64,000 nt of DNA from Pontiella agarivorans (GTDB taxonomy: Bacteria; Verrucomicrobiota; Kiritimatiellia; Kiritimatiellales; Pontiellaceae): positions 992,001 to 1,056,000 of the forward strand of contig NZ_JARVCO010000012.1 of assembly GCF_034531395.1 (NCBI RefSeq). Reading direction: 5' to 3'. This document shows positions 5,018 to 59,437 of the stretch, in pieces (within the stretch, counting starts at the first letter, position 1; the number at the start of each line of letters is the position of its first letter). Under the pieces are notes generated by a model that saw nothing but the letters and a program-made list of their open reading frames with translations, was not told where the DNA came from and made no database searches. Made by a program: the position numbers and the translations under genes.

Positions 5018-6533
5018 ACGTTCCGTATTGATCGGGCTCGCTGTGGCACTGGTTGCTGTTGCCGTTCTGCTGCTGAATCCGGGAAATGATACGAATAAAA
5101 TCGATATGGATGAGGCCAACCTTTGCCAGGTTCAGCAGGGGGATCTGGTGGTAAGTATTTTGCAGTCGGGCGAACTGCGAGCAAAGAAGAGCCGGGATAT
5201 TCAGAATCAGGCCTATCGCGATGCCAAGATTACCTCGATTGTGGATGACGGCGCTTTTGTGACCAATGGACAGCTGCTGTTTGAGTTGGAATCGGCTCAG
5301 CTTCAGGAGCGCTATCTTGATCAGCAGTCCGATGTTGCCGAAGCGGAAGCCAGTCTGAAGCTGGCCATAGAAAATCTGGCCATCGCGAAGCTTAAAAATG
5401 CAACCGATCTGGAAACCGCAAAAATGAAAGCGGAGCTGGCCCGGATGGACCTGCAGAAATATGTGGACGTGGAATATCAGCAGCAGGTGGATAAGGCACA
5501 GTCGGAGATTTATCTCGCCGAACAGGAGCTGAAAAAGGCCCGTAATGAACTGGCCGGAACGCAGGAGCTTTATGATAAAGGCTATTCCAACCGGACGGAG
5601 CTGGAGGCCGATCAGCTGGGTGTGGAGCGTAAAGAGGTTGAGGTGAAAAATAAAAAAGCCGACCTCGAAATCCTGAAAAACTACACGCATATCAAGCGGC
5701 AGATGGAACTGAAAAATGCGGTTTCAAATGCGGTGTCAGCGCTGGAACGCATGAAAAAATCCCAGTCAGCGGATATCCAGAGTAAAGAAGCCGGCATCGA
5801 GTCCAAAAAGACCCGACTGGAAATTGAACGCAATCAGCTCGCGACTAAAGAGACCGAATTTTCCAATACCAAGGTTTATGCCGATTTTGACGGTCAGGTT
5901 TTTTATCCCAAGGAACGACACCGCCCGAAAATTGAAAAAGGGGCCACTGTTCAGATGCGTCAGAAAATCCTCTCATATCCGGATCTTTCGGCTTGGAATC
6001 TGCAGGTGGGTATTCCGGAAGCGATGATTGATAAGGTGTCGGTTGGGCAGCATGCCGTCGCGACGCTGGATGCGTTGCCGGGGCTGATCCTTGAGGGCAA
6101 TATTGAGAAGGTCAGTGCTGTTCCGGACTCCCAGAACTGGTTCAGTTCCGGTGTTAAGACGTATACGATTATGATCGATGTCACCTCCGAAACCAATACT
6201 CAGCTTAAGCCGGGAATGTCGGCTACCGTTGAAATCGTTACCGATGAGCTCAAAAACGTTCTTTATGTACCGATTCAGGCGGTGGTCTCGCGTGACGGAA
6301 CCCATTATGTTTATGTGGTGAATCACGGGCGTAAAGAGCTGCGCGAAGTTGAAATCGGTAAATTCAACACGTATTCCATCGAGATTGTTTCCGGTCTGGA
6401 AGTTGGAGAAGAGCTTTTACTTTATGCAGAAGTTGAGCTCGAAGCCGATGCTCAGCTCAAGAAAAGTCCACTTGATGTTGAGGAAAAAGGCCGGGCGGAA
6501 AACTCGAAATCAGAGGCCCGGGATAAAGCATGA
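4986..6533 (+). CDS. HlyD/MacA-family periplasmic adaptor subunit
   Basis: Membrane-fusion protein that bridges the inner-membrane ABC transporter and the TolC-like channel. A single N-terminal membrane anchor lies at about residues 12-30 (SVLIGLAVALVAVAVLLL). After it come a lipoyl/barrel-sandwich half, a very long coiled coil (roughly residues 90-280, rich in E, K, A, Q and L), the second barrel half, and a C-terminal beta domain of the MacA/CusB type. At 515 residues it is longer than most MacA proteins, mainly because of the hairpin. ATG 4986 is chosen because AAGGGA lies just upstream at suitable spacing. It ends in an ATGA overlap with the ABC ATPase gene, which implies translational coupling. 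The exported substrate is unknown. Confidence 0.87.
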   Translation: MSNPKKKLLSKRSVLIGLAVALVAVAVLLLNPGNDTNKIDMDEANLCQVQQGDLVVSILQSGELRAKKSRDIQNQAYRDAKITSIVDDGAFVTNGQLLFELESAQLQERYLDQQSDVAEAEASLKLAIENLAIAKLKNATDLETAKMKAELARMDLQKYVDVEYQQQVDKAQSEIYLAEQELKKARNELAGTQELYDKGYSNRTELEADQLGVERKEVEVKNKKADLEILKNYTHIKRQMELKNAVSNAVSALERMKKSQSADIQSKEAGIESKKTRLEIERNQLATKETEFSNTKVYADFDGQVFYPKERHRPKIEKGATVQMRQKILSYPDLSAWNLQVGIPEAMIDKVSVGQHAVATLDALPGLILEGNIEKVSAVPDSQNWFSSGVKTYTIMIDVTSETNTQLKPGMSATVEIVTDELKNVLYVPIQAVVSRDGTHYVYVVNHGRKELREVEIGKFNTYSIEIVSGLEVGEELLLYAEVELEADAQLKKSPLDVEEKGRAENSKSEARDKA

Positions 6534-49802: not shown

Positions 49803-50243
49803 TTAATTTTCCGTATTCGGGAAAAGTGCAACGCGGTCCAGCACCTTGAACCCTGCGCTCTGCAGCGCCGTGACAGCTTTATCCATGTCGTCGAAACGGA
49901 ACAGCAGTACGGCATTTTCACCGCTCTTAATCGTGAAGGCATACATGTATTCCACGCTGATTTCCGCCGCCTCTTCCACCTGCAGAACATCCCGTAATCC
50001 ACCGGGTTCATCGCTTACTTCCACCGCAATCACTTCTGTGATTTTGGCCACAAACCCTTTTTCTTCCAGAAGGGACTTCGCCGCCTCGCAGTCGCTGACG
50101 ATCAGGCGGAGAATACCGAACTGTTCCGTGTCGGCCAGTGAGATCGTGATCATGTTGATTCCGTTATCCGCCAGCAATGCACAAAGCTCGCGTAACCGGC
50201 CGGGTTTATTTTCCAGGAATACCGATAACTGTTTCAGTTTCAT
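49803..50243 (-). CDS. Tandem ACT-domain protein
   Basis: A 146-residue protein of two ACT-like modules: KQLSVFLENKPGRLRELCALL in the first, and VAVEVSDEPGGLRDVLQVEEAA in the second. ACT domains bind amino acids, so this may sense an aromatic or branched-chain amino acid. Similar stand-alone tandem ACT proteins accompany PaaK-IorAB loci in anaerobes. It lies between two paaK paralogues with 24 bp and 0 bp gaps, so it is certainly in one transcript. A GGAG box precedes its ATG. Whether it regulates the ligases allosterically is inference. Confidence 0.88.
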   Translation of the reverse strand: MKLKQLSVFLENKPGRLRELCALLADNGINMITISLADTEQFGILRLIVSDCEAAKSLLEEKGFVAKITEVIAVEVSDEPGGLRDVLQVEEAAEISVEYMYAFTIKSGENAVLLFRFDDMDKAVTALQSAGFKVLDRVALFPNTEN

Positions 50244-50267: not shown

Positions 50268-51593
50268 TTATCGATTATCGATCACCCGTTTTGCTTTGCC
50301 CATGGACCGCTCGATCATGTTGGGTTCAACCAGGGTGAGCTTTACGCGAATGCCGAGGATGTGAGCGATGGCATCGGACAGTTGTTTGTGTACGGCTTCC
50401 ACTCCGCGAACGGTGTCGGTGAAGGTTTCGGCCGTGACTTCCACCTGAACTTCCATCTGGTCCATTCCGCCGGAGCGCGAAAGTACAATCTGATAATGCG
50501 GCAGCGTTTCCTCCACGTTAAGCAGCGCGGCTTCGACCTGCGACGGGAAGACGTTTACGCCGCGAATAATGAACATGTCGTCGGAGCGGCGGGCAATTCG
50601 GTTGATCCGACGGATGGTGCGGCCGCATTCGCATTTTTCCGGAATGATGCTCGTGATGTCGTGGGTGCGGTAGCGCATTACGGGCATCGCTTTTTTGCTC
50701 AGCGTTGTGATGATCAGCTCGCCTTCTTCGCCATCGGGCATGGGTTCATCGGTGACGGGGTCAACAATTTCGATCATGAAATGATCTTCAAAAATATGCA
50801 GGCCGCTCTGTTCGGAGCAGGCCATACCGACGCCGGGGCCGATGATTTCCGAAAGACCGTAAATATCGAATGCTTTGATGCCCGTTTTCCCTTCAATGTA
50901 TTCGCGCATCTCATCGGTCCACGGTTCGGCACCGAAGATTCCTGCCCGCAACGGGAGATCGGGCCACTCGATGCCCATCTTTTCTGCATACTCAATCAGA
51001 TGCAGAAAATAGCTCGGTGTGGCACAGATGGCGGTGGTGCCGAAATCGCGCATCACCATAATCTGCCGTTCGGAATTTCCGCCGGAAATAGGAATAACCG
51101 TGGCGTTTAATGCTTCAGCGCCGTAGTGCGCGCCGAGTCCTCCGGTGAAGAGGCCGTAGCCATAGGCATTCTGGACGATGTCTCCGCTATGCAATCCCGC
51201 ACAGGCAAAAGCCCGAATCATGACCTCTTTCCAGACCTCAATATCTTCGGTGGTGTAGGCCACAACAATGGGCTTTCCCGTCGTGCCGGACGAAGCATGC
51301 AAACGAACCACCTCGCTCATCGGGACGGCGAAGAGTCCGTAGGGATAGGTGTCGCGCAGGTCCGTTTTCTGTGTGAACGGCAGCTTGCGGATATCGTCCA
51401 GCGTTTGGACATCATCGGGCGTCACTCCCGTTGCCTCCATGCGTTCCCGGAAGAGCGTTTGATTTTCATAAGCGTGCCGGGTCATGGCCCGAAGCCGTTG
51501 AAGCTGAAGTTTTCGAAGCTGTTCTTCGCGCAGATAATCCGGCGCGGAAGCAGGATGAATCAGACTCTCCCGATCATTCCATTGTGTGTGCAT
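50268..51593 (-). CDS. Phenylacetate-CoA ligase (PaaK family), paralogue 2
   Basis: First gene of the leftward PaaK-ACT-PaaK unit. The 441 residues carry LHASSGTTGKPIVVAY near residue 98, NAYGYGLFTGGLGAHYGAE near 140, FDIYGLSEIIGPGVG near 238, RTHDITSIIPEKCECGR and SDDMFIIRGVNVFPSQVE near the C-terminus. It is more conserved than paralogue 1 in the C-terminal region. A shared operator-like inverted repeat lies 75 bp upstream. Having two ligases suggests two aryl acids (for example phenylacetate and indole- or hydroxyphenylacetate), but the sequence does not assign which does which. Confidence 0.92.
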   Translation of the reverse strand: MHTQWNDRESLIHPASAPDYLREEQLRKLQLQRLRAMTRHAYENQTLFRERMEATGVTPDDVQTLDDIRKLPFTQKTDLRDTYPYGLFAVPMSEVVRLHASSGTTGKPIVVAYTTEDIEVWKEVMIRAFACAGLHSGDIVQNAYGYGLFTGGLGAHYGAEALNATVIPISGGNSERQIMVMRDFGTTAICATPSYFLHLIEYAEKMGIEWPDLPLRAGIFGAEPWTDEMREYIEGKTGIKAFDIYGLSEIIGPGVGMACSEQSGLHIFEDHFMIEIVDPVTDEPMPDGEEGELIITTLSKKAMPVMRYRTHDITSIIPEKCECGRTIRRINRIARRSDDMFIIRGVNVFPSQVEAALLNVEETLPHYQIVLSRSGGMDQMEVQVEVTAETFTDTVRGVEAVHKQLSDAIAHILGIRVKLTLVEPNMIERSMGKAKRVIDNR

Positions 51594-51667
51594 GGCATGC
51601 CTTTCAGTAACGTTATTTGAATTGAAAAGATCTACTGAATACCGGCCGTTAAAGCAAGATAGCTCAC

Positions 51668-51696
51668 CAAAATACTTAAATTCTATACGTATTTAA
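51668..51696. promoter_or_regulatory. Operator-like dyad A (AAATAC-T, N11, CGTATTTAA)
   Basis: Half-sites CAAAATACT and CGTATTTAA are separated by 11 bp, about two helical turns centre to centre. It lies 75 bp upstream of the paaK-like start codon. The right half is 12/12 identical to dyad C over ATACGTATTTAA. Confidence 0.65.
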
Positions 51697-51893
51697 ATTT
51701 AGTATCAAATAGCCCGGCTGCCGGACCGGTATTGGATTGAAGCTGAAAATCGAAAAGAAAAAGCTCAATCGGTCCGAAGCGAACCGGGGTATGGACTTAT
51801 GAAAATCGAAAAAAGAAGCGAAACAGCCATACGTGATCATCGAATACACCATATCGCACCGAAGAAGCTTGGCCCTTTTCGTTGAATCCCTCT

Positions 51894-51922
51894 TAAAATA
51901 CGGTTAAAAAGTACGTTTATTT
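51894..51922. promoter_or_regulatory. Operator-like dyad B (TAAAATACG, N11, CGTTTATTT)
   Basis: Same spacing as dyads A and C, with the right half slightly diverged (CGTTTATTT). It ends 15 bp before the thioesterase ATG, so binding would interfere with initiation. It is the weakest of the three. Confidence 0.55.
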
Positions 51923-51937
51923 TCTTTGGGGAATTCC

Positions 51938-52351
51938 ATGTTCAGTCATACCTGTCAACTGAGAGTACGTTACAGTGAATCGGATCGCATGGGGACCTTC
52001 TATAATTCACGCCTGCTGGAGTGGATGGAAGTGGGGCGCTCAGAGCTGACCCGCGCCGCGGGAAAAGCCTATGCGGAATGGGAGGCCGAGGGGGTCATGG
52101 CTCCGATTATAGAAGCGAATCTGAAGTTTAAAGGGCGCGCCGGTTATGATGACCTGCTGTGTCTGGAAACCACGTGCGAGCGGGCGGGGCGGGCGCGGCT
52201 TAAATTTCAGACGGTGATCACCATGGCCGGAACCGGGAAACCCGTGGCGGAAGGATTTACCATTCATGCACTGACCAACCCCGAAGGAAGCCCCATCCGT
52301 ATTCCGGATTGGATTAATCATTTACTAAACGGAGAGAAATATGAGCAGTGA
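51938..52351 (+). CDS. Acyl-CoA thioesterase, YbgC/4-hydroxybenzoyl-CoA type hotdog protein
   Basis: A 137-residue hotdog-fold protein whose family cleaves acyl- or aryl-CoA esters. The hotdog start VRYSESDRMGTFYNSRLLEWMEVGR carries the active-site acidic residue region (Asp within ESDRMG) and the central helix. ATG 51938 is preferred; the frame opens at TTG 51926. A GGGG box lies 6 bp upstream. It overlaps iorA by 11 bp, so the two are coupled. In this locus it could hydrolyse arylacetyl-CoA formed by the oxidoreductase. Confidence 0.85.
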   Translation: MFSHTCQLRVRYSESDRMGTFYNSRLLEWMEVGRSELTRAAGKAYAEWEAEGVMAPIIEANLKFKGRAGYDDLLCLETTCERAGRARLKFQTVITMAGTGKPVAEGFTIHALTNPEGSPIRIPDWINHLLNGEKYEQ

Positions 52352-53936
52352 ACGTAAACTGATGAGCGGCAACGAAGCCGTTGCTCTGGGAACCAAACAT
52401 GCCGGCTGTGCGCTGGGCGTTGGATATCCCGGAACGCCATCCACCGAAATTCTCGAAAATTATGCCAAGCTCGAAGACTGTAAAGCGCAGTGGGCTCCGA
52501 ATGAAAAAGTCGCCCTGGAAGTCGGTATCGGCGTGGCCTTTGCCGGAACCCGCACCATCATCACCATGAAACACGTCGGCCTCAATGTGGCCGCCGATCC
52601 GCTTTTCACCGTGGCCTACACCGGTGTCACCGGCGGGATGGTGCTGGCCGTTGCCGACGATCCGGGCATGGCCTCCTCTCAGAATGAGCAGGATTCACGA
52701 AACTATGCCCGGGCGGCCGGCGTTCCGCTGCTCGAACCGGCCGACTCGCAGGAAGCCTATGATATGACCAAGCTGGCGTTCGAGATTTCCGAACGTTGGG
52801 GTCAGCCTGTTATTCTCCGACTCAGCACACGGGTTTGCCATTCCAAAACCATCGTGATTCCTTCTGAATCGAAACCTGTTCCGCAGGCCGATTATGTGCG
52901 CGACATTTCAGGCCGTGTGATGATTCCGGCCTATGCACGTCCGGCACACAAAAGAATGCGGGCCAAGCTGGCGGAAATCGAAGAATGGAACAATGCTGAA
53001 GGACCGAATCCAATCATTGGAAACAGCACTAAACTCGGCATCATTGCCAACGGCGTTACCGCGCTGCATGCGCAGGAAGCGGCGCCGGATGCAAAAGTGA
53101 TGAAGCTGGGCATGGTTTATCCGCTGCCCATGAAAGCCATTCTTGAATTCATCGATTCCGTGGATGACTGCATCATTATCGAAGAATCCGATCCCTTCAT
53201 TCAAACCGAAGTGCAGGCCGCCGGCGGCAAGGTCCGCCCGCGGCTGGAGCGCTATCGGTATGGCGAGCTCGATGTGATTCGTGTGAAACGTATCATCGAT
53301 GGCGACGACTCCGAAGAAGCGGCACCGCCGCGCGGAAAGCCGCCGCAGCTCTGCGACGGCTGCCCGCACCGTGCCAGTTTCAAATTGCTGAAAAATATCG
53401 GATGCACCATCACCGGCGACATCGGTTGCTACACGCTGGGCGTGCTGCCGCCTTTCGAAACCATGGATACCTGCATCTGCATGGGCGGTTCGATTGGGAT
53501 CGGTCTGGGAATGCGCCACGTACTGCCGGAAGAGCAGGCGCGCAAAGTGGTCAGTGTAATCGGCGACGGAACCTTTATGCATAGCGGTCTGACCGGGGTG
53601 GCCGATATGATCTGTAACCGTCCGAAGTATGGCCACGTGATCGTGATTCTGGATAATGGAACCACCGCCATGACCGGCCTGCAGGAACATCCGGGCACCG
53701 GGAAAACGCTGGATCATCAGCCGGCAGAAAAAACGGTTTCCATCGAAGCCACCTGCGAAGCCATGGGGGTTGATAAAGTGGTGGTGCTTGATCCGTCCCG
53801 CGAAATGGAACGCTTTGAGCAGGCCGTCCGCGATGCCTTGGCCTCTGACGACCTGACGGTAATTATTGCGCGCCGTCCCTGCATTCTTGCTGTTGCGCGC
53901 GATGCAAAAATCAAGCGCGGCGAGAAGGTGCGCTAG
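52341..53936 (+). CDS. iorA: Indolepyruvate ferredoxin oxidoreductase alpha subunit, lacking the C-terminal ferredoxin domain
   Basis: TPP-dependent enzyme that oxidises aromatic 2-oxo acids (indole-, phenyl- or hydroxyphenylpyruvate) to arylacetyl-CoA, reducing ferredoxin. The 531 residues have the pyrimidine-binding N-terminal GVGYPGTPSTEI, the EQDSRNYARAAGVPLLEP block, the LCDGCPHRASFKLL motif near residue 340, and the TPP GDIGCYTLGV, IGDGTFMHSG and DNGTTAMTG segments. Typical IorA proteins have about 60 more residues with two CxxCxxCxxxCP [4Fe-4S] motifs at the C-terminus. Here the protein ends at KIKRGEKVR just where they would start, and none is found downstream. It starts with an 11-bp overlap with the thioesterase. 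Confidence 0.92.
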   Translation: MSSERKLMSGNEAVALGTKHAGCALGVGYPGTPSTEILENYAKLEDCKAQWAPNEKVALEVGIGVAFAGTRTIITMKHVGLNVAADPLFTVAYTGVTGGMVLAVADDPGMASSQNEQDSRNYARAAGVPLLEPADSQEAYDMTKLAFEISERWGQPVILRLSTRVCHSKTIVIPSESKPVPQADYVRDISGRVMIPAYARPAHKRMRAKLAEIEEWNNAEGPNPIIGNSTKLGIIANGVTALHAQEAAPDAKVMKLGMVYPLPMKAILEFIDSVDDCIIIEESDPFIQTEVQAAGGKVRPRLERYRYGELDVIRVKRIIDGDDSEEAAPPRGKPPQLCDGCPHRASFKLLKNIGCTITGDIGCYTLGVLPPFETMDTCICMGGSIGIGLGMRHVLPEEQARKVVSVIGDGTFMHSGLTGVADMICNRPKYGHVIVILDNGTTAMTGLQEHPGTGKTLDHQPAEKTVSIEATCEAMGVDKVVVLDPSREMERFEQAVRDALASDDLTVIIARRPCILAVARDAKIKRGEKVR

Positions 53937-53985
53937 CACCCTCCGATTTAGGCATTGGGATTCGGACTCCTGAAAGGATTGAACT

Positions 53986-54456
53986 ATGAATAAAGTTACG
54001 AATGTAAAATTTGCAGGGCTGGGCGGACAGGGGATTTTAACCTGCACCGACATTCTCGGGCGCGTTGTGTTTGATATGGGCAACGATGTGAAAAAAGCGG
54101 AAGTGCACGGCATGAGTCAGCGCGGCGGTTCCATTACCTCCGATCTTCGTTTCGGCGATAAGGTGCTCAGCCCGATGATTTCGGCCGGGCAGGCCGATTT
54201 CCTGGTGGTGATGGGAGAGGATCTGGTTGAAGCCAATCAGTATTTTCTGAAGGATGGCGGTATGCTCGTGAAACCGTCCGATTTCGAGGTGGATCAACTG
54301 ACCAATAAGCGGACGTTGAATGTGGCTCTGCTCGGCGCACTGAGCAAACATATGCCGTTTTCGGTGGAGCAGTGGATGGATGCCGTCCGCGCACAGCTTC
54401 CAGAACGCCTGCATGAAGTGAACGAAGCCGCGTTCATGCTCGGAAGAGGTGAGTAG
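53986..54456 (+). CDS. iorB: Indolepyruvate ferredoxin oxidoreductase beta subunit
   Basis: A 156-residue gamma/beta-type subunit of 2-oxoacid:ferredoxin oxidoreductases. It shows FAGLGGQGILTCTDILG at the N-terminus, the KKAEVHGMSQRGGSITSDLRFG block and LLGALSKHMPF towards the end. It is shorter than most IorB proteins (about 190-200), having lost part of the C-terminus. It forms the partner of IorA 49 bp upstream. A large hairpin (54486-54523) and a thioesterase gene follow. Together the subunits would make arylacetyl-CoA plus reduced ferredoxin from aromatic amino acids after transamination. Confidence 0.9.
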   Translation: MNKVTNVKFAGLGGQGILTCTDILGRVVFDMGNDVKKAEVHGMSQRGGSITSDLRFGDKVLSPMISAGQADFLVVMGEDLVEANQYFLKDGGMLVKPSDFEVDQLTNKRTLNVALLGALSKHMPFSVEQWMDAVRAQLPERLHEVNEAAFMLGRGE

Positions 54457-54485
54457 GAACGGACCTTCCTGTCAGAAAACGTCTG

Positions 54486-54523
54486 AAGGTCGAAAGTCAA
54501 AGGTCTGCTTGACTTTCGACCTT
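54486..54523. repeat. 15-bp perfect hairpin in the iorB-thioesterase gap
   Basis: AAGGTCGAAAGTCAA pairs perfectly with TTGACTTTCGACCTT across AGGTCTGC. Related words (GACCTTTGAC) continue for 25 bp. It has the look of an intergenic REP-type repeat, and would fold strongly in mRNA. Confidence 0.75.
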
Positions 54524-54565
54524 TGACATTGGGACCTTTGACCGAACAGGAAACCGGAGATTTAT

Positions 54566-54982
54566 ATGAGTGCGCATAAAATTAAAGAACTGATTCGGAA
54601 GAACGATAATCTGGGCAATTATCTGGGCGTCAAATTAACCGAAGTCAGTGAAGGGCGGGCATACGCCGAACTGAAAATTGAAAAATGCCACCTGAACGCG
54701 GCGGGCGTTACCCATGGAGCCTCGATCTTTGCGCTGGCGGATATTGCGTTGGCGGCGGCATCGAACTCCTATGGCAATGTGGCCTTGCTGACCAACGGCA
54801 ATATTCAGGTTTTTCATGCCACGCCGCTGGGCGACACCCTCACCGCGAAAGCCAAGGAAGTTTCCGCCAGCCGCAAGCTGGCGCACTACCGGATTAAGGT
54901 AACCAATCAGGCCGGCGACCAAATTGCGGTCTATAATGCGACGGTGTATAAAACCAGTACGCCGCTGCCCGACAGCGAATAG
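54566..54982 (+). CDS. PaaI-family hotdog thioesterase
   Basis: A 138-residue hotdog-fold protein of the PaaI/YdiI branch: start MSAHKIKELIRKNDNLGNYL, the active-site helix GVTHGASIFALADIALAAAS, LTNGNIQVFHATPLGDTL and the terminal ATVYKT. PaaI hydrolyses aryl-CoA or stalled intermediates in phenylacetate catabolism. It is the second thioesterase in this unit (the first at 51938 is YbgC-like). It lies 109 bp after iorB. Two palindromes and a terminator follow within 70 bp, so it is probably the last gene of the rightward transcript. Confidence 0.88.
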   Translation: MSAHKIKELIRKNDNLGNYLGVKLTEVSEGRAYAELKIEKCHLNAAGVTHGASIFALADIALAAASNSYGNVALLTNGNIQVFHATPLGDTLTAKAKEVSASRKLAHYRIKVTNQAGDQIAVYNATVYKTSTPLPDSE

Positions 54983-54997
54983 TTCCAATCTCTGGAA
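54983..54997. repeat. TTCCA-N5-TGGAA palindrome, tandem copy 1 after the PaaI-family gene
   Basis: Exact arms, core ATCTC, starting with the base after the stop codon. A second copy begins 17 bp later. Confidence 0.85.
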
Positions 54998-54999
54998 AA

Positions 55000-55014
55000 T
55001 TCCAAGGTCTGGAA
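55000..55014. repeat. TTCCA-N5-TGGAA palindrome, tandem copy 2 after the PaaI-family gene
   Basis: Exact arms, core AGGTC, two bases after copy 1 and 7 bp before the terminator stem. Confidence 0.85.
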
Positions 55015-55021
55015 ACGCAGA

Positions 55022-55051
55022 AAGCGCCCTCCGCACGGAGCGCGCTTTTTT
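55022..55051 (+). terminator. Intrinsic terminator of the ior unit
   Basis: AAGCGC-C-CTCC pairs with GGAG-C-GCGCTT around a GCAC loop, followed by six T. The only unpaired position in the stem is one C/C mismatch. Confidence 0.82.
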
Positions 55052-55070
55052 GTTTTCCGGCAAGGGGCGT

Positions 55071-56273
55071 TCAGAACGCATACGTCAGAAACAAACGAAA
55101 ATCACCGGCCGGGGTATTCGGGCCGTCCTGATACCCGAGTCCCGCTTTTCCGCACACCGTCATATTTTCGCCGACGGGTTGTTTGACGATCAGATCTAGT
55201 TCGCCTGCACTGTTTAAGGCAGCGAGATCATTCTGTTTGGTGTATTGCAGCAGGGTATAGAGTATCGTTTCAGAACGTTCCAGTCGGGTCGTGGCTTTCA
55301 GGTAGAACGAGTCCGCGCCGCCGGCAAATGTGTCGGTATAAAACATCAGCGAGGTGCCCAGCGCATGATTAAACCCGGTGGTGAAGGGATTGAACTGAAG
55401 CCCATCTCCGTACACCCCGAAATAACCGCCTTCCACACGAACCTTGCCCACCCGCTGCACCACCGAAAGTCCCAGCGCATCCGCGTGGTGCGTTGCGGCG
55501 CGGCCGAGATTGAACTCGTTGCGGTAGTAGCCGAGCAGAGAGGTTTTTTCCGAGAGCGTATATCCGGCGCGAATCCCGAACAGATTGGCCACATCCCATG
55601 CGGCGGCATCGAAAAGTGCAATATCGAGTTCCTCCATTCCGGTATAGGCGGCCTCGCCCCAGGTCATCCCGTCCGTGTCGTAGCTCTTGCCGAATATCTC
55701 GCCGTAGTTCCGGAATTTCCAGCGATCGCCCGCATCCAGAATTCCGCTTTGTTCAATGGCATGGCCGCCCGCAAACCGCCAGTGCCCGATGTCGTTAAAC
55801 CGGGCCTGCAGGGCGGTGATAGAACGGGATTTCTGGCGGATGTCATCGGCGCGGAAGACTTCGGCATTGTTGATTTGCCGTCCGACGCTGGCGCTGGAGT
55901 ATTCAAGAAAGGTATAATTCACATACGCTTCGTTGAGCACGTGAATGCGACCGTTGGAGACGAGATAATCGCCGGGATTCGCGGTCTTGCCGTAATCCAT
56001 GGAATCGAGCACGCCCGCGCCGTTATAGGCCGCGCCGAGGGACCAGCCGGACAAGTCCGGGGACGTATATTTCAGAAGAAAACCCAGTGTCGTTGAGTAG
56101 GCGTTGGCCCCGTTGTCATAGTCGCGGTACATGCTGACCGATTGCAGGCGTCCGGAGAGTGTGCCGAAGCCCTTTTCGTTCAGCGGTTTCACAACGCTTT
56201 CGGCCGTTGCAAAGGAGGCCGCCAGGGTTGCTGCCAGAATGCAGGTAGTTTTTTGTTTCATGCTGTTTTTCAT
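55071..56273 (-). CDS. OprD-like outer membrane porin
   Basis: A 400-residue protein with a signal peptide (MKNSMKQKTTCILAATLAAS, cleaved near ATAE) and an all-beta sequence with repeated amphipathic strands, ending in the aromatic F that marks outer-membrane barrels. The start of the mature part, with GRLQSVSMYRDYDNGANAYSTTL and YTSPDLSGWSLGAAYNG, resembles the OprD family, which includes aromatic-acid porins such as PhaK and OpdK; the similarity is by eye. It is translationally coupled (ATGA) to the symporter gene upstream. It would let the aryl acid cross the outer membrane. Confidence 0.78.
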   Translation of the reverse strand: MKNSMKQKTTCILAATLAASFATAESVVKPLNEKGFGTLSGRLQSVSMYRDYDNGANAYSTTLGFLLKYTSPDLSGWSLGAAYNGAGVLDSMDYGKTANPGDYLVSNGRIHVLNEAYVNYTFLEYSSASVGRQINNAEVFRADDIRQKSRSITALQARFNDIGHWRFAGGHAIEQSGILDAGDRWKFRNYGEIFGKSYDTDGMTWGEAAYTGMEELDIALFDAAAWDVANLFGIRAGYTLSEKTSLLGYYRNEFNLGRAATHHADALGLSVVQRVGKVRVEGGYFGVYGDGLQFNPFTTGFNHALGTSLMFYTDTFAGGADSFYLKATTRLERSETILYTLLQYTKQNDLAALNSAGELDLIVKQPVGENMTVCGKAGLGYQDGPNTPAGDFRLFLTYAF

Positions 56274-57916
56274 GATTTCGTTCCCATACATCGGTCCAGA
56301 TGATCTTCCGCTGTTTTTTTGGAAAAACACGAAACGGCCACCGTCATCAGTACGGACAGCGGAAGGCCGATCATCAGCGGATCAACATAGGCCCAGACAA
56401 TGGGGCCCATGGATGAAAACACCTCTTTCCCGTCGACCAGATGAATGGCCAGCGACCGGGTGCCGAAAAGCCGGTTGCAGAGGAGCAGGGCGGAAGAGGC
56501 CTTTTCCTGAATAAAGACCATCCAGAAAAGGCTGAAAACGGAGCCGCTCAGCATGCCGGCAATGGCCCCGGCTTTGGTAATGCTTCGGCTCCACAAGGCC
56601 CCCACATACATGGGCAGAAAGGCGCAGGCGCAAAGACCGAAAAAGATAGCGGTCCCGCGGGCCACAATCGAGGTTCCCGTTTTGCCGAATTTAAGTTCGA
56701 TGATGTAGCTGAGGTAAACAGAAATCAGAATGCCCACGAACACCGCTCCGCGGGTGGCCAAAACGCCTCCGCCGTTATTCTTCCGGCCCATGGATTCTTC
56801 AACCAGATCCCGGCCGAGCGAAGTGCCCATCACATGAAACTGGCTGCTGAGCGTGCTCATGGCCGCAGAAATCAGGGTGAGCATAAACAGAATGCTGAAC
56901 CATTCGGGCATGGCACTTTGAAGATACATCGGGATGATGGCTTCAACATCACCCTTGGCCGCCACAATGGATACCTTGCCCAGCGTCTGCTGAAAATGGA
57001 CGTTGGAAAGTGCGCCGACCACATATGCCACACCGGTCACCATCATAATAAACACACCGCCGATCGGAATGGCACGGTTCAGCTCTTTGCCGCTCTTCAC
57101 CGTCATATACCGCACCGCCAGCTGAGGCTGAGCCAACACGCCGATGCCCACGCCCATAATGATGGTGCTCACCAGCACCCACCAGCTCGGGGCACCGAAC
57201 TTCGGCATACTCGTCCAGCCCTGATGTCCGCCCGCCTGCAGTTTTTCCGGAACCAGCGCCGCCATGTCGGTAAGGCTTTGGTGGGCCGCCGTAACCCCGC
57301 CCATTTTAACGTAGGTCATGATCAGCAGCGCCGTCATGCCGAACAGCATGATGGTTCCCTGCAGCGCATCCGTATACATCACGCCCTTGATTCCGCCCAT
57401 CACCACATAAAGCGCAATGATGACGGAAAAAACAAACAGCGCCACGTTGTAGTCGACCGAAAACTGCGAGGAAATATATTTCGCCGCGCCGATCAGAACG
57501 GCCGAAGCATAGAGCGGAATGAACAGAAAAATAATGATGGCCACGGCGCCCTGGATGAAGCGCGATTGAAACCGTCTGCCCAGCAGTTCCGGAAAGGTAT
57601 GGGCATCGAGCCGAAGTCCCATTCTGCGCGTCCGGCCGCCAAATACCCAGAAGGCGATAAAGATGCCGATAAAGATATTCATAACCGTCAGCCACAGCAG
57701 CCCCATGCCGAATACGCCGGCCGCACCGCCGAACCCGACGATGGCCGAGGTGCTGATGAAGGTGGCTCCATACGACATCGCCATCACATACGGATGAACC
57801 GAACGTCCGCCCAGCATATAGTCGGTGGCCGATTTTGTGGTTTTAAAGCCCCGGAACCCGAGGTATCCAATGACGCAGAGATACGCCACGACAATGATCA
57901 TCATCCAAATAGACAT
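56270..57916 (-). CDS. Sodium:solute symporter (SSS family)
   Basis: A 548-residue secondary transporter with about 13 transmembrane helices of the SSS/LeuT fold. Family landmarks are the GGRSVHPYVMAMSYGATFISTSAIVGFGGAAG region near residue 35-65, VMGGIKGVMYTDALQG and the ISAAMSTLSSQFHVM block near residue 345. A small accessory-protein gene (57926) sits just upstream, and the porin overlaps by 4 bp downstream, so three genes form one unit. It probably imports an organic acid with sodium. The shared operator-like dyad points to an aryl acid; the substrate is not provable from sequence. Confidence 0.9.
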   Translation of the reverse strand: MSIWMMIIVVAYLCVIGYLGFRGFKTTKSATDYMLGGRSVHPYVMAMSYGATFISTSAIVGFGGAAGVFGMGLLWLTVMNIFIGIFIAFWVFGGRTRRMGLRLDAHTFPELLGRRFQSRFIQGAVAIIIFLFIPLYASAVLIGAAKYISSQFSVDYNVALFVFSVIIALYVVMGGIKGVMYTDALQGTIMLFGMTALLIMTYVKMGGVTAAHQSLTDMAALVPEKLQAGGHQGWTSMPKFGAPSWWVLVSTIIMGVGIGVLAQPQLAVRYMTVKSGKELNRAIPIGGVFIMMVTGVAYVVGALSNVHFQQTLGKVSIVAAKGDVEAIIPMYLQSAMPEWFSILFMLTLISAAMSTLSSQFHVMGTSLGRDLVEESMGRKNNGGGVLATRGAVFVGILISVYLSYIIELKFGKTGTSIVARGTAIFFGLCACAFLPMYVGALWSRSITKAGAIAGMLSGSVFSLFWMVFIQEKASSALLLCNRLFGTRSLAIHLVDGKEVFSSMGPIVWAYVDPLMIGLPLSVLMTVAVSCFSKKTAEDHLDRCMGTKS

Positions 57917-57925
57917 CGATTCCCC

Positions 57926-58102
57926 TTACAACTCTGCTTCAACGCGGTTTTCTTCTTCGGCCCAATGCGAAATTTCTTCTTCAGGCTCCTGAACCGTGTC
58001 ATCGACATTCCATTTGAACGCCCCCCAGACGAGGCAAATCAGTGTGCAGATTATGCACAGAAAATAACCCAAAACGACCCATGGATCTTCAATCCCCAGC
58101 AT
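57926..58102 (-). CDS. Symporter small accessory protein
   Basis: A 58-residue single-pass membrane protein: MLGIEDPWVVLGYFLCIICT, then LICLVWGAFKWNVDD and an acidic tail. This pattern matches the small accessory proteins found next to SSS-family transporters. ATG 58102 is chosen over the ATG at 58138, because a GGGGGA box lies 7 bp upstream and the protein then begins MLGIEDPW. It lies 9 bp before the symporter gene, so it is coupled to it. It may help fold or target the transporter. Confidence 0.88.
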   Translation of the reverse strand: MLGIEDPWVVLGYFLCIICTLICLVWGAFKWNVDDTVQEPEEEISHWAEEENRVEAEL

Positions 58103-58156
58103 TGATACATCCCCCTGTATTGTTACGATTCGACGCAATACAACAGGTTAGCGCAT

Positions 58157-58185
58157 TTAAATACGGATAGACAATACGTATTTAA
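58157..58185. promoter_or_regulatory. Operator-like dyad C (perfect TTAAATACG, N11, CGTATTTAA)
   Basis: A perfect 9-bp inverted repeat separated by 11 bp. It lies 55 bp upstream of the symporter accessory gene. It is the best preserved of three such dyads, the others controlling the PaaK and ior units. Confidence 0.75.
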
Positions 58186-58336
58186 GCGTGAGGCAGACTT
58201 TTGCACCCGCAAAATATGATCATTTTATTCGCATATCTTCGCCGTGAATTATCACGGTTGGGCATTGCTCCGCGGGGGGCGGATGATAACATAGACGTTT
58301 TACATTTTTTATCACCGATAATGCAAGGAGCAGGGG

Positions 58337-59437
58337 ATGATACCCAAAAAATATATTTCCGATCTGCGGGTCTACGAACCCGGAAAACCCATCGAAGAAG
58401 TGGCGCGCGAACTGGGGTTCGACGATATCGCCGAAATTGTGAAAGTGGCATCCAATGAAAATGAACTCGGTCCGTCACCGCTGGCGGCGGAAGCCATGCG
58501 GGAAGCCATTCCGGAAATGCACCGCTATCCGGACGGCGGCGCATTTTATCTGAAACAGAAATTGGCGGAAAAGCTTTCGGTTGACCCCGAAAACCTTCTG
58601 TTCGGCTGCGGGAGCAATGAGCTGATTGTTTTCCTCTGCCATGTATTTATGGAGCAGGGAAAAAATCTGATTATGGGGGCCGAAGCCTTTGCCGTCTATT
58701 TTCTGGCCAACGCCCTCTACGGCGGCGAAACCATTCGCGTTCCCATGCCGGAGCACGTGCACGATCTCGATGCCATGCTCGCCGCCATCACCCCCGAAAC
58801 CCGTCTGGTCTGCATCTGCAATCCCAACAACCCGACCGGAACGATGCTTCCGCCCGAAGCCATCGACGCCTTCATCGAACAGCTGCCGGATCACGTTGTC
58901 GCGGTTTTCGACGAAGCCTATTTTGAAGTCATGCCCGATGCCATGAAACCCGATGTGCTCAAACACATCCGCGCCGGGAAAAAGAATATCATTGTGCTGC
59001 GCACCTTTTCCAAAGCCTACGGTCTCGCCGGGCTGCGCATCGGCTATGCCGTCGCGCATCCCGAATTGATCAACCTGCTCAACAAAGTGCGCCAGCCCTT
59101 TAACGTCAATCTGATGGCGCAATCAGCGGCCCTGGCGGCGCTCGATGATGTGACGCATATGGTTGAAACCCGCGAAATGGTTTTCCAGGGATTGGAATTT
59201 TTCCAAGCCGAACTTCCAAAGCTTGGAATCGAGACGGTTCCGTCGGGCGCGAACTTTATTCTGGTGAAGACCGGAAACGGACGGGAAATCTTTGAAGAAC
59301 TGCAGAAACGCAAGGTGATTGTGCGTCCGATGGATCCCTATGGATTGCCGGACTATATTCGCATAACTATCGGCACCCCAGAGCAGAATCAATTGATGCT
59401 CGACGCGCTGAAATCGGTCATGGCGGATAAAAGTTAA
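58337..59437 (+). CDS. hisC: Histidinol-phosphate aminotransferase HisC
   Basis: A PLP-dependent aminotransferase acting on imidazole-acetol phosphate; the class also accepts aromatic substrates. The 366 residues have VASNENELGPSP, FGCGSNELI, the CNPNNPTGTMLP motif, DEAYFEVM and the PLP lysine segment TFSKAYGLAGLRIGYAV near residue 228, plus PSGANFILVK. An AAGGAGC box precedes the ATG. Only hisG (14.9 kb) is otherwise seen in the window, so the his pathway is split. Given its neighbourhood beside the aryl-acid regulon, a role in aromatic amino-acid transamination should not be excluded. Two exact 15-bp palindromes lie inside. Confidence 0.93.
   Translation: MIPKKYISDLRVYEPGKPIEEVARELGFDDIAEIVKVASNENELGPSPLAAEAMREAIPEMHRYPDGGAFYLKQKLAEKLSVDPENLLFGCGSNELIVFLCHVFMEQGKNLIMGAEAFAVYFLANALYGGETIRVPMPEHVHDLDAMLAAITPETRLVCICNPNNPTGTMLPPEAIDAFIEQLPDHVVAVFDEAYFEVMPDAMKPDVLKHIRAGKKNIIVLRTFSKAYGLAGLRIGYAVAHPELINLLNKVRQPFNVNLMAQSAALAALDDVTHMVETREMVFQGLEFFQAELPKLGIETVPSGANFILVKTGNGREIFEELQKRKVIVRPMDPYGLPDYIRITIGTPEQNQLMLDALKSVMADKS
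59183..59197. repeat. TTCCA-N5-TGGAA palindrome, in hisC
   Basis: Exact arms, core GGGAT; in frame FQGLE. Followed 16 bp later by another copy. Confidence 0.85.
59214..59228. repeat. TTCCA-N5-TGGAA palindrome, second copy in hisC
   Basis: Exact arms, core AAGCT, which makes all but one central base pair palindromic. Confidence 0.85.

What the first reader, a model, noticed from the sequence alone, without database searches (positions are those of the whole stretch)
51668..58185. A shared 29-bp operator links three aryl-acid transcription units
Dyads with half-sites like AAATACG and CGTATTT, always 11 bp apart, occur at 51668 (before the PaaK unit), 51894 (before thioesterase-iorA-iorB) and 58157 (before accessory protein-symporter-porin). 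The last is perfect over 9+9 bases. Half-site centres are 20 bp apart, two helical turns, as for dimeric regulators. Nothing similar was seen elsewhere in the window. No regulator gene is adjacent, so the regulator is encoded elsewhere.
Basis: seen in the sequence. Interest (0 to 1): 0.78.

Follow-up and report, generated by a model that had tools for sequence, protein, structure and literature searches.

The report
Shared operator of aryl-acid gene cluster
Three neighbouring promoters that drive aryl-acid uptake and aromatic-acid enzymes in the marine bacterium Pontiella agarivorans carry the same evolutionarily kept DNA dyad, most likely the docking site of one still unidentified repressor, which is a solid but fairly ordinary kind of regulatory finding.

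Summary
Dyads AAATACN-N11-CGTATTT lie at 51670-51694, 51896-51920 and 58159-58183, in the promoters of paaK1-ACT-paaK2, thioesterase-iorA-iorB and accessory protein-symporter-porin. A matrix built from any two sites and their orthologues recovers the third at or near the top of 127,952 window positions. None of 20,000 shuffles of the paaK1/iorAB intergenic region gives two such sites. Genome-wide, only six places match with 2 or fewer mismatches, three of them these. The genome is Pontiella agarivorans NLcol2 (identical size, contig count and N50). In three sister genomes the arms of the paaK1 site are invariant while its spacer drifts, and the symporter-promoter dyad is partly kept in five relatives. 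Comparative promoter anatomy puts the iorAB site over the -10 box and the symporter site over the -35 box, so a repressor is the best reading; the paaK1 site has two possible promoter contexts. No regulator gene lies in the window, within 16 kb to the right, or consistently beside the cluster in relatives. PaaX is absent from the genus, and the regulator remains unidentified. A local orphan operator: real, conserved, new in detail, not new in kind.

The parts
51670..51694 (.). Site 1, AAATACTTAAATTCTATACGTATTT, upstream of paaK1-ACT-paaK2
   Evidence: arms AAATAC and TACGTATTTAAAT invariant in G000, G001, G009, G025 with variable spacer
51896..51920 (.). Site 2, AAATACGGTTAAAAAGTACGTTTAT, over the -10 region of thioesterase-iorA-iorB
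   Evidence: kept in the same four genomes
58159..58183 (.). Site 3, AAATACGGATAGACAATACGTATTT (perfect 9+9 dyad over 58157-58185), over the -35 region of accessory protein-symporter-porin
   Evidence: dyad pairing of 5 of 7 kept in G001, G009, G005, G022 (two copies) and G017 at or near the same frame
51882..51910 (+). Inferred promoter of thioesterase-iorA-iorB: TTGAAT-N17-TAAAAA (or N16-TTAAAA)
   Evidence: Position-conserved TTGAAA-like and TTTAAA-like boxes in eleven genomes
58145..58174 (-). Inferred promoter of accessory protein-symporter-porin: TTGTCT-N18-TAACCT
   Evidence: TTG and TAAC/TAGC positions conserved in most of nine orthologous upstream regions
51629..51657 (-). Inferred conserved promoter P2 of paaK1: TTGCTT-N17-TAGATC; site 1 then centres near -60
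   Evidence: Boxes kept in G000, G001, G009, G025, G017, G022
51680..51708 (-). Alternative promoter P1 of paaK1: TTGATA-N17-TAGAAT, with site 1 around its -10 as at site 2
   Evidence: 10 of 12 consensus match, but about one such match is expected by chance and the -10 hexamer is not kept in sisters
58265..58292 (+). Inferred separate promoter of the divergent aminotransferase: TTGCTC-N16-TAACAT
   Evidence: Boxes recognisable in relatives; site 3 lies about 100 bp upstream of it
50268..51593 (-). paaK1, phenylacetate-CoA ligase family
   Evidence: TIGR02155, 569 bits, below its cut-off of 646
49803..50243 (-). ACT-domain-pair protein
   Evidence: PF19571
48486..49802 (-). paaK2, second aryl-CoA ligase
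51938..52351 (+). TE1, hotdog thioesterase
52341..53936 (+). iorA, indolepyruvate:ferredoxin oxidoreductase alpha subunit lacking the C-terminal end of the model
   Evidence: TIGR03336, positions 2-540 of 595, below cut-off
53986..54456 (+). iorB, beta subunit
   Evidence: below cut-off
54566..54982 (+). TE2, PaaI-like hydroxyphenylacetyl-CoA thioesterase
   Evidence: TIGR02286, below cut-off
55071..56330 (-). Porin-like outer-membrane protein
   Evidence: weak Opr-porin match only
56270..57916 (-). Sodium:solute symporter
   Evidence: PF00474
57929..58105 (-). Symporter small accessory protein
   Evidence: NF045580, 58 bits, cut-off 35
58337..59437 (+). HisC-family aminotransferase, divergent from the symporter unit
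   Evidence: TIGR01141, over cut-off

Best explanation
The three dyads are binding sites of one DNA-binding protein, encoded elsewhere in the genome, that controls this locus. Shown: the sites are real, shared, rare in the genome and kept in sister species. Inferred: the protein is mainly a repressor. At thioesterase-iorA-iorB it would cover the -10 box and at the symporter unit the -35 box, keeping RNA polymerase off; at paaK1 it would either cover a clade-specific promoter (P1) in the same way or act from about -60 of the conserved promoter (P2). Inferred further: the signal is an aromatic metabolite of the pathway (aryl acid, aryl-CoA, arylpyruvate or aromatic amino acid), so that uptake (porin, symporter), aryl-CoA formation (PaaK) and the IorAB oxidoreductase step rise and fall together.
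For: Leave-one-out matrices recover each site at rank 1, 3 and 5 of 127,952 positions, outscored only by the other sites and their reverse readings. 0 of 20,000 shuffles. Six places genome-wide with 2 or fewer mismatches, three of them here. Site 1: arms invariant and spacer variable across four genomes; site 2: 25 of 28 columns invariant against 37 of 77 outside. Site 3 orthologues keep 5 of 7 arm pairs in six of nine other upstream copies at or near the same frame, against about 2-3 in slid frames. The core promoters were placed from genus-wide conservation, independently of the dyads. The gene families form one aryl-acid pathway.
Against: No protein has been shown to bind. The arms drift in more distant Pontiellaceae that keep the same genes. 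At site 3 column conservation among the three closest genomes inside the site (16 of 25) is hardly above outside (46 of 85). The geometry differs between promoters. The regulator was not found.
Confidence: 0.62

Rival explanations
1. The sites are activator sites: a regulator bound upstream recruits RNA polymerase, as class-I activators do from about -61.
For: At paaK1 the conserved promoter P2 (TTGCTT-N17-TAGATC) has a weak -10 box and puts site 1 at about -60.
Against: At iorAB the site covers -10 and at the symporter it covers -35, both unusual for activation. P2 is kept in G017 and G022, which lack the site.
Confidence: 0.2
2. The arms are not an operator but promoter boxes: TTAAAT (-35) and TATTTA (-10) spaced by 16, which happen to be mutually complementary.
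For: TTAAAT-N16-TATTTA can be read at sites 1 and 3, and the citrate-synthase promoters of the genus end in a conserved CGTATTTT that looks like a -10 box.
Against: At iorAB and the symporter a different core promoter is conserved genus-wide with the arms outside or around it. In G001 and G005 the symporter arms would be poor boxes. At site 1 the invariant block ATTTAAATACGTA is longer than a -35 hexamer.
Confidence: 0.1
3. Chance similarity of AT-rich promoter DNA.
For: The intergenic DNA is AT-rich (40% GC in 51594-51937), and matches with 3 mismatches are as common as in the control.
Against: 0 of 20,000 shuffles, leave-one-out ranks, and conservation of arms with a drifting spacer.
Confidence: 0.04
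4. The sites belong to a wider regulon that includes central carbon genes (citrate synthase, isocitrate dehydrogenase, an ActP-like acetate permease).
For: Motif-like places lie upstream of citrate synthase in G000 and G017, of isocitrate dehydrogenase in G000 and G025 and of an ActP-like permease in G018.
Against: Orthologues do not keep the dyad: at citrate synthase only the promoter boxes are constant; at isocitrate dehydrogenase in G025 the match overlaps the 3' end of the upstream gene and the other genomes lack it; the ActP dyad is lost in G022. No excess over control genome-wide.
Confidence: 0.08

Closest known systems
PaaX / PaaR control of phenylacetate genes in proteobacteria and Thermus (from memory)
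   Same: An operator in front of phenylacetate-CoA ligase genes, repression relieved by an aryl-CoA
   Different: PaaX is absent from all eleven Pontiella-group genomes searched, and its known operator is a different sequence (from memory)
CrbS/R and RpuS/R two-component control of SSS symporters and acid utilisation (PMC5715377, PMC9100948)
   Same: A short repeat in promoters of organic-acid symporter genes
   Different: The published ACTU sites (for example TACTACCATCGTCGAAT) are activator sites of another sequence; RpuR uses an imperfect direct repeat. Neither resembles AAATACG-N11-CGTATTT
TyrR and TrpR boxes (aromatic amino-acid regulons of enterobacteria, from memory)
   Same: Dyad operators shared by scattered aromatic-metabolism units
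   Different: Different half-sites and spacings; neither family was searched for here
Lrp/AsnC regulators paired with aminotransferase genes
   Same: Every genome that carries the operator at two or more promoters has an Lrp-type gene directly upstream of an aminotransferase gene
   Different: Also present in genomes without the operator, and its own promoter lacks the dyad; only a weak candidate

Membership tests
Shared operator of one regulon | Same sequence in several promoters beyond chance | tested here: met
Shared operator of one regulon | Kept in orthologous promoters of related species | tested here: met
   Sites 1 and 2 in four genomes, site 3 partly in five relatives
Shared operator of one regulon | Absent from unrelated promoters | tested here: met
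   No excess over the reversed control outside the cluster
Shared operator of one regulon | Bound by a defined regulator | not testable with these tools
   Needs pull-down or footprinting
PaaX regulon | PaaX-family regulator in the genome | tested here: not met
   PF07848: 0 of 11 genomes, while control genomes give matches
CrbR (ACTU) regulon | ACTU-type inverted repeat | tested here: not met
   Published sequences compared by eye with the three sites
Lrp/AsnC regulon | Lrp-type regulator present | tested here: met
   One copy in G000
Lrp/AsnC regulon | Regulator distribution matches operator distribution | tested here: not met
   Also in G018, G015, G002 and G032, where no operator was seen

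The most novel reading that the evidence does not exclude
An undescribed transcription factor of Kiritimatiellota, sensing an aromatic metabolite, co-represses aryl-acid uptake, aryl-CoA ligation and the indolepyruvate:ferredoxin oxidoreductase through a 25-bp dyad of a type not assigned to any known family; the operator spread from the symporter promoter to the enzyme promoters within the genus Pontiella.
Probability: 0.3. Interest if true: 0.5.

Novelty: new member of a known kind. Interest (0 to 1): 0.36.

Why it matters
I found no described regulator or operator for indolepyruvate:ferredoxin oxidoreductase with aryl-CoA ligase in the literature held here. The site ties uptake and enzymes into one unit, which would help decide whether the pathway salvages aryl acids into aromatic amino acids or ferments amino acids. 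P. agarivorans is in culture, so the dyad is a ready bait for finding the regulator.

Tried and rejected
Wider regulon: motif-like places before citrate synthase, isocitrate dehydrogenase and an ActP permease were followed through orthologues and dropped. Finding the regulator: flanks of the cluster in relatives, 16 kb beyond the window on the right, Lrp/AsnC, PaaX and MarR (too many copies to resolve) gave no convincing gene. Loop phasing between sites 1 and 2: their spacing differs between genomes (226 bp here, about 480 bp in G001), so no fixed phase. Direct-repeat parse (AATACG twice, 13 bp apart) fits sites 2 and 3 but not site 1. Papers on regulators of indolepyruvate oxidoreductase: none relevant. 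Rfam found only three tRNAs in the window.

Full report
What was checked. In the 25-bp frame they are AAATACTTAAATTCTATACGTATTT (51670), AAATACGGTTAAAAAGTACGTTTAT (51896) and AAATACGGATAGACAATACGTATTT (58159). Against AAATACG-N9-TACGTATTT the window holds only one other place with up to 3 mismatches, at 6352.

Chance. Leave-one-out test: a matrix made from two sites and their orthologues, arms only, ranks the third at position 1 (site 3), 3 (site 1) or 5 (site 2) of 127,952, and all higher scores are the other sites or their reverse readings. Shuffling the 344-bp paaK1/iorAB intergenic region 20,000 times never gave a 13/14 match together with a 12/14 match. In the 4.44-Mb genome six places match with 2 or fewer mismatches, three of them these; at 3 mismatches there is no excess over the reversed control. 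The element is therefore local, not global.

Organism.

Conservation. The cluster occurs in about a dozen genomes of the genus and, in part, in the order. In the three nearest (G001, G009, G025; IorA 93-95% identical) site 1 keeps AAATAC and TACGTATTTAAAT without change while the spacer varies, and site 2 keeps 25 of 28 columns against 37 of 77 outside. G025 has no close symporter orthologue and no site 3. At the symporter promoter, G001, G009, G005, two copies in G022, and G017 keep 5 of 7 arm pairs at or near the same frame, against typically 2-3 in slid frames (the frame had to be moved by one base in G005 and two in G017). G007, G018 and G002 do not. The iorAB and paaK1 sites are absent in G005, G017 and G022 although the genes are there. 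The simplest history is an old site at the symporter and a later spread to the enzyme promoters, or loss in the others.

Promoter anatomy. Boxes conserved across the genus place the iorAB promoter at TTGAAT-N17-TAAAAA and the symporter promoter at TTGTCT-N18-TAACCT. Site 2 then spans the -10 box and site 3 the -35 box. paaK1 has a widely kept P2 (TTGCTT-N17-TAGATC), which leaves site 1 at about -60, and a possible P1 (TTGATA-N17-TAGAAT) that would give the same geometry as site 2; P1 is not kept in sister species. Two of three positions are classical for repression. The divergent aminotransferase has its own conserved promoter about 100 bp from site 3, so whether it belongs to the regulon is open. 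All promoters are inferred from sequence; no start site has been mapped.

Function of the targets. Aryl-CoA ligases, an ACT-domain pair, thioesterases (one PaaI-like), IorA and IorB, a sodium:solute symporter with its small accessory protein, and a porin-like protein, divergent from a HisC-family aminotransferase. In G039 a gene that reads as chorismate mutase/prephenate dehydratase by its N-terminus lies next to TE1 (not confirmed by a family search). This fits either salvage of aryl acids into aromatic amino acids or oxidative breakdown of aromatic amino acids; the sequence does not decide.

Regulator. None in the window as read from its open reading frames (not every frame was put through a family search), none recognised in 16 kb to the right, and none consistently linked in relatives. 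PaaX is absent from the genus. One Lrp-type gene directly upstream of an aminotransferase gene is present in nearly all genomes; its promoter lacks the dyad and it also occurs where the operator does not. In G018 an ArsR-like gene diverges from TE1 (read sequence; weak MarR_2 hit L313), but G018 lacks the dyad there. The regulator stays unknown.

Verdict. A real, conserved, locus-specific operator; most likely for a repressor that answers to an aromatic metabolite. Shared site and conservation are shown; repression is inferred from geometry; ligand and protein are not known. New in detail, ordinary in kind.

Noticed in passing
51594-51937; L058, L059, L061, L063, L263: Five relatives carry a small ferredoxin gene between paaK1 and the thioesterase; it is missing here and in G025, while this IorA lacks the C-terminal end of the IOR alpha model, so the electron carrier must come from elsewhere.
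   Followed up: partly
L278-L289 (citrate synthase upstream regions): A strikingly constant promoter CTTGMAWG...AMCGTATTTT in front of citrate synthase across the genus, which may show what -10 boxes look like in Pontiella.
   Followed up: partly
L264-L275: A conserved pair of Lrp-type regulator and class-I aminotransferase genes in most Pontiella genomes searched.
   Followed up: partly
58212-58236: Weak fourth match AAATATGATCATTTTATTCGCATAT, 53 bp (about five helical turns) from site 3; not clearly kept in relatives.
   Followed up: partly
L061, L063: The accessory protein-symporter pair is duplicated in G017 and G022; each genome has a dyad at one copy or more.
   Followed up: no
L065 (G018), upstream of TE1: An ArsR-like helix-turn-helix gene divergent from the thioesterase gene, possibly a different regulator of the same operon.
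   Followed up: no
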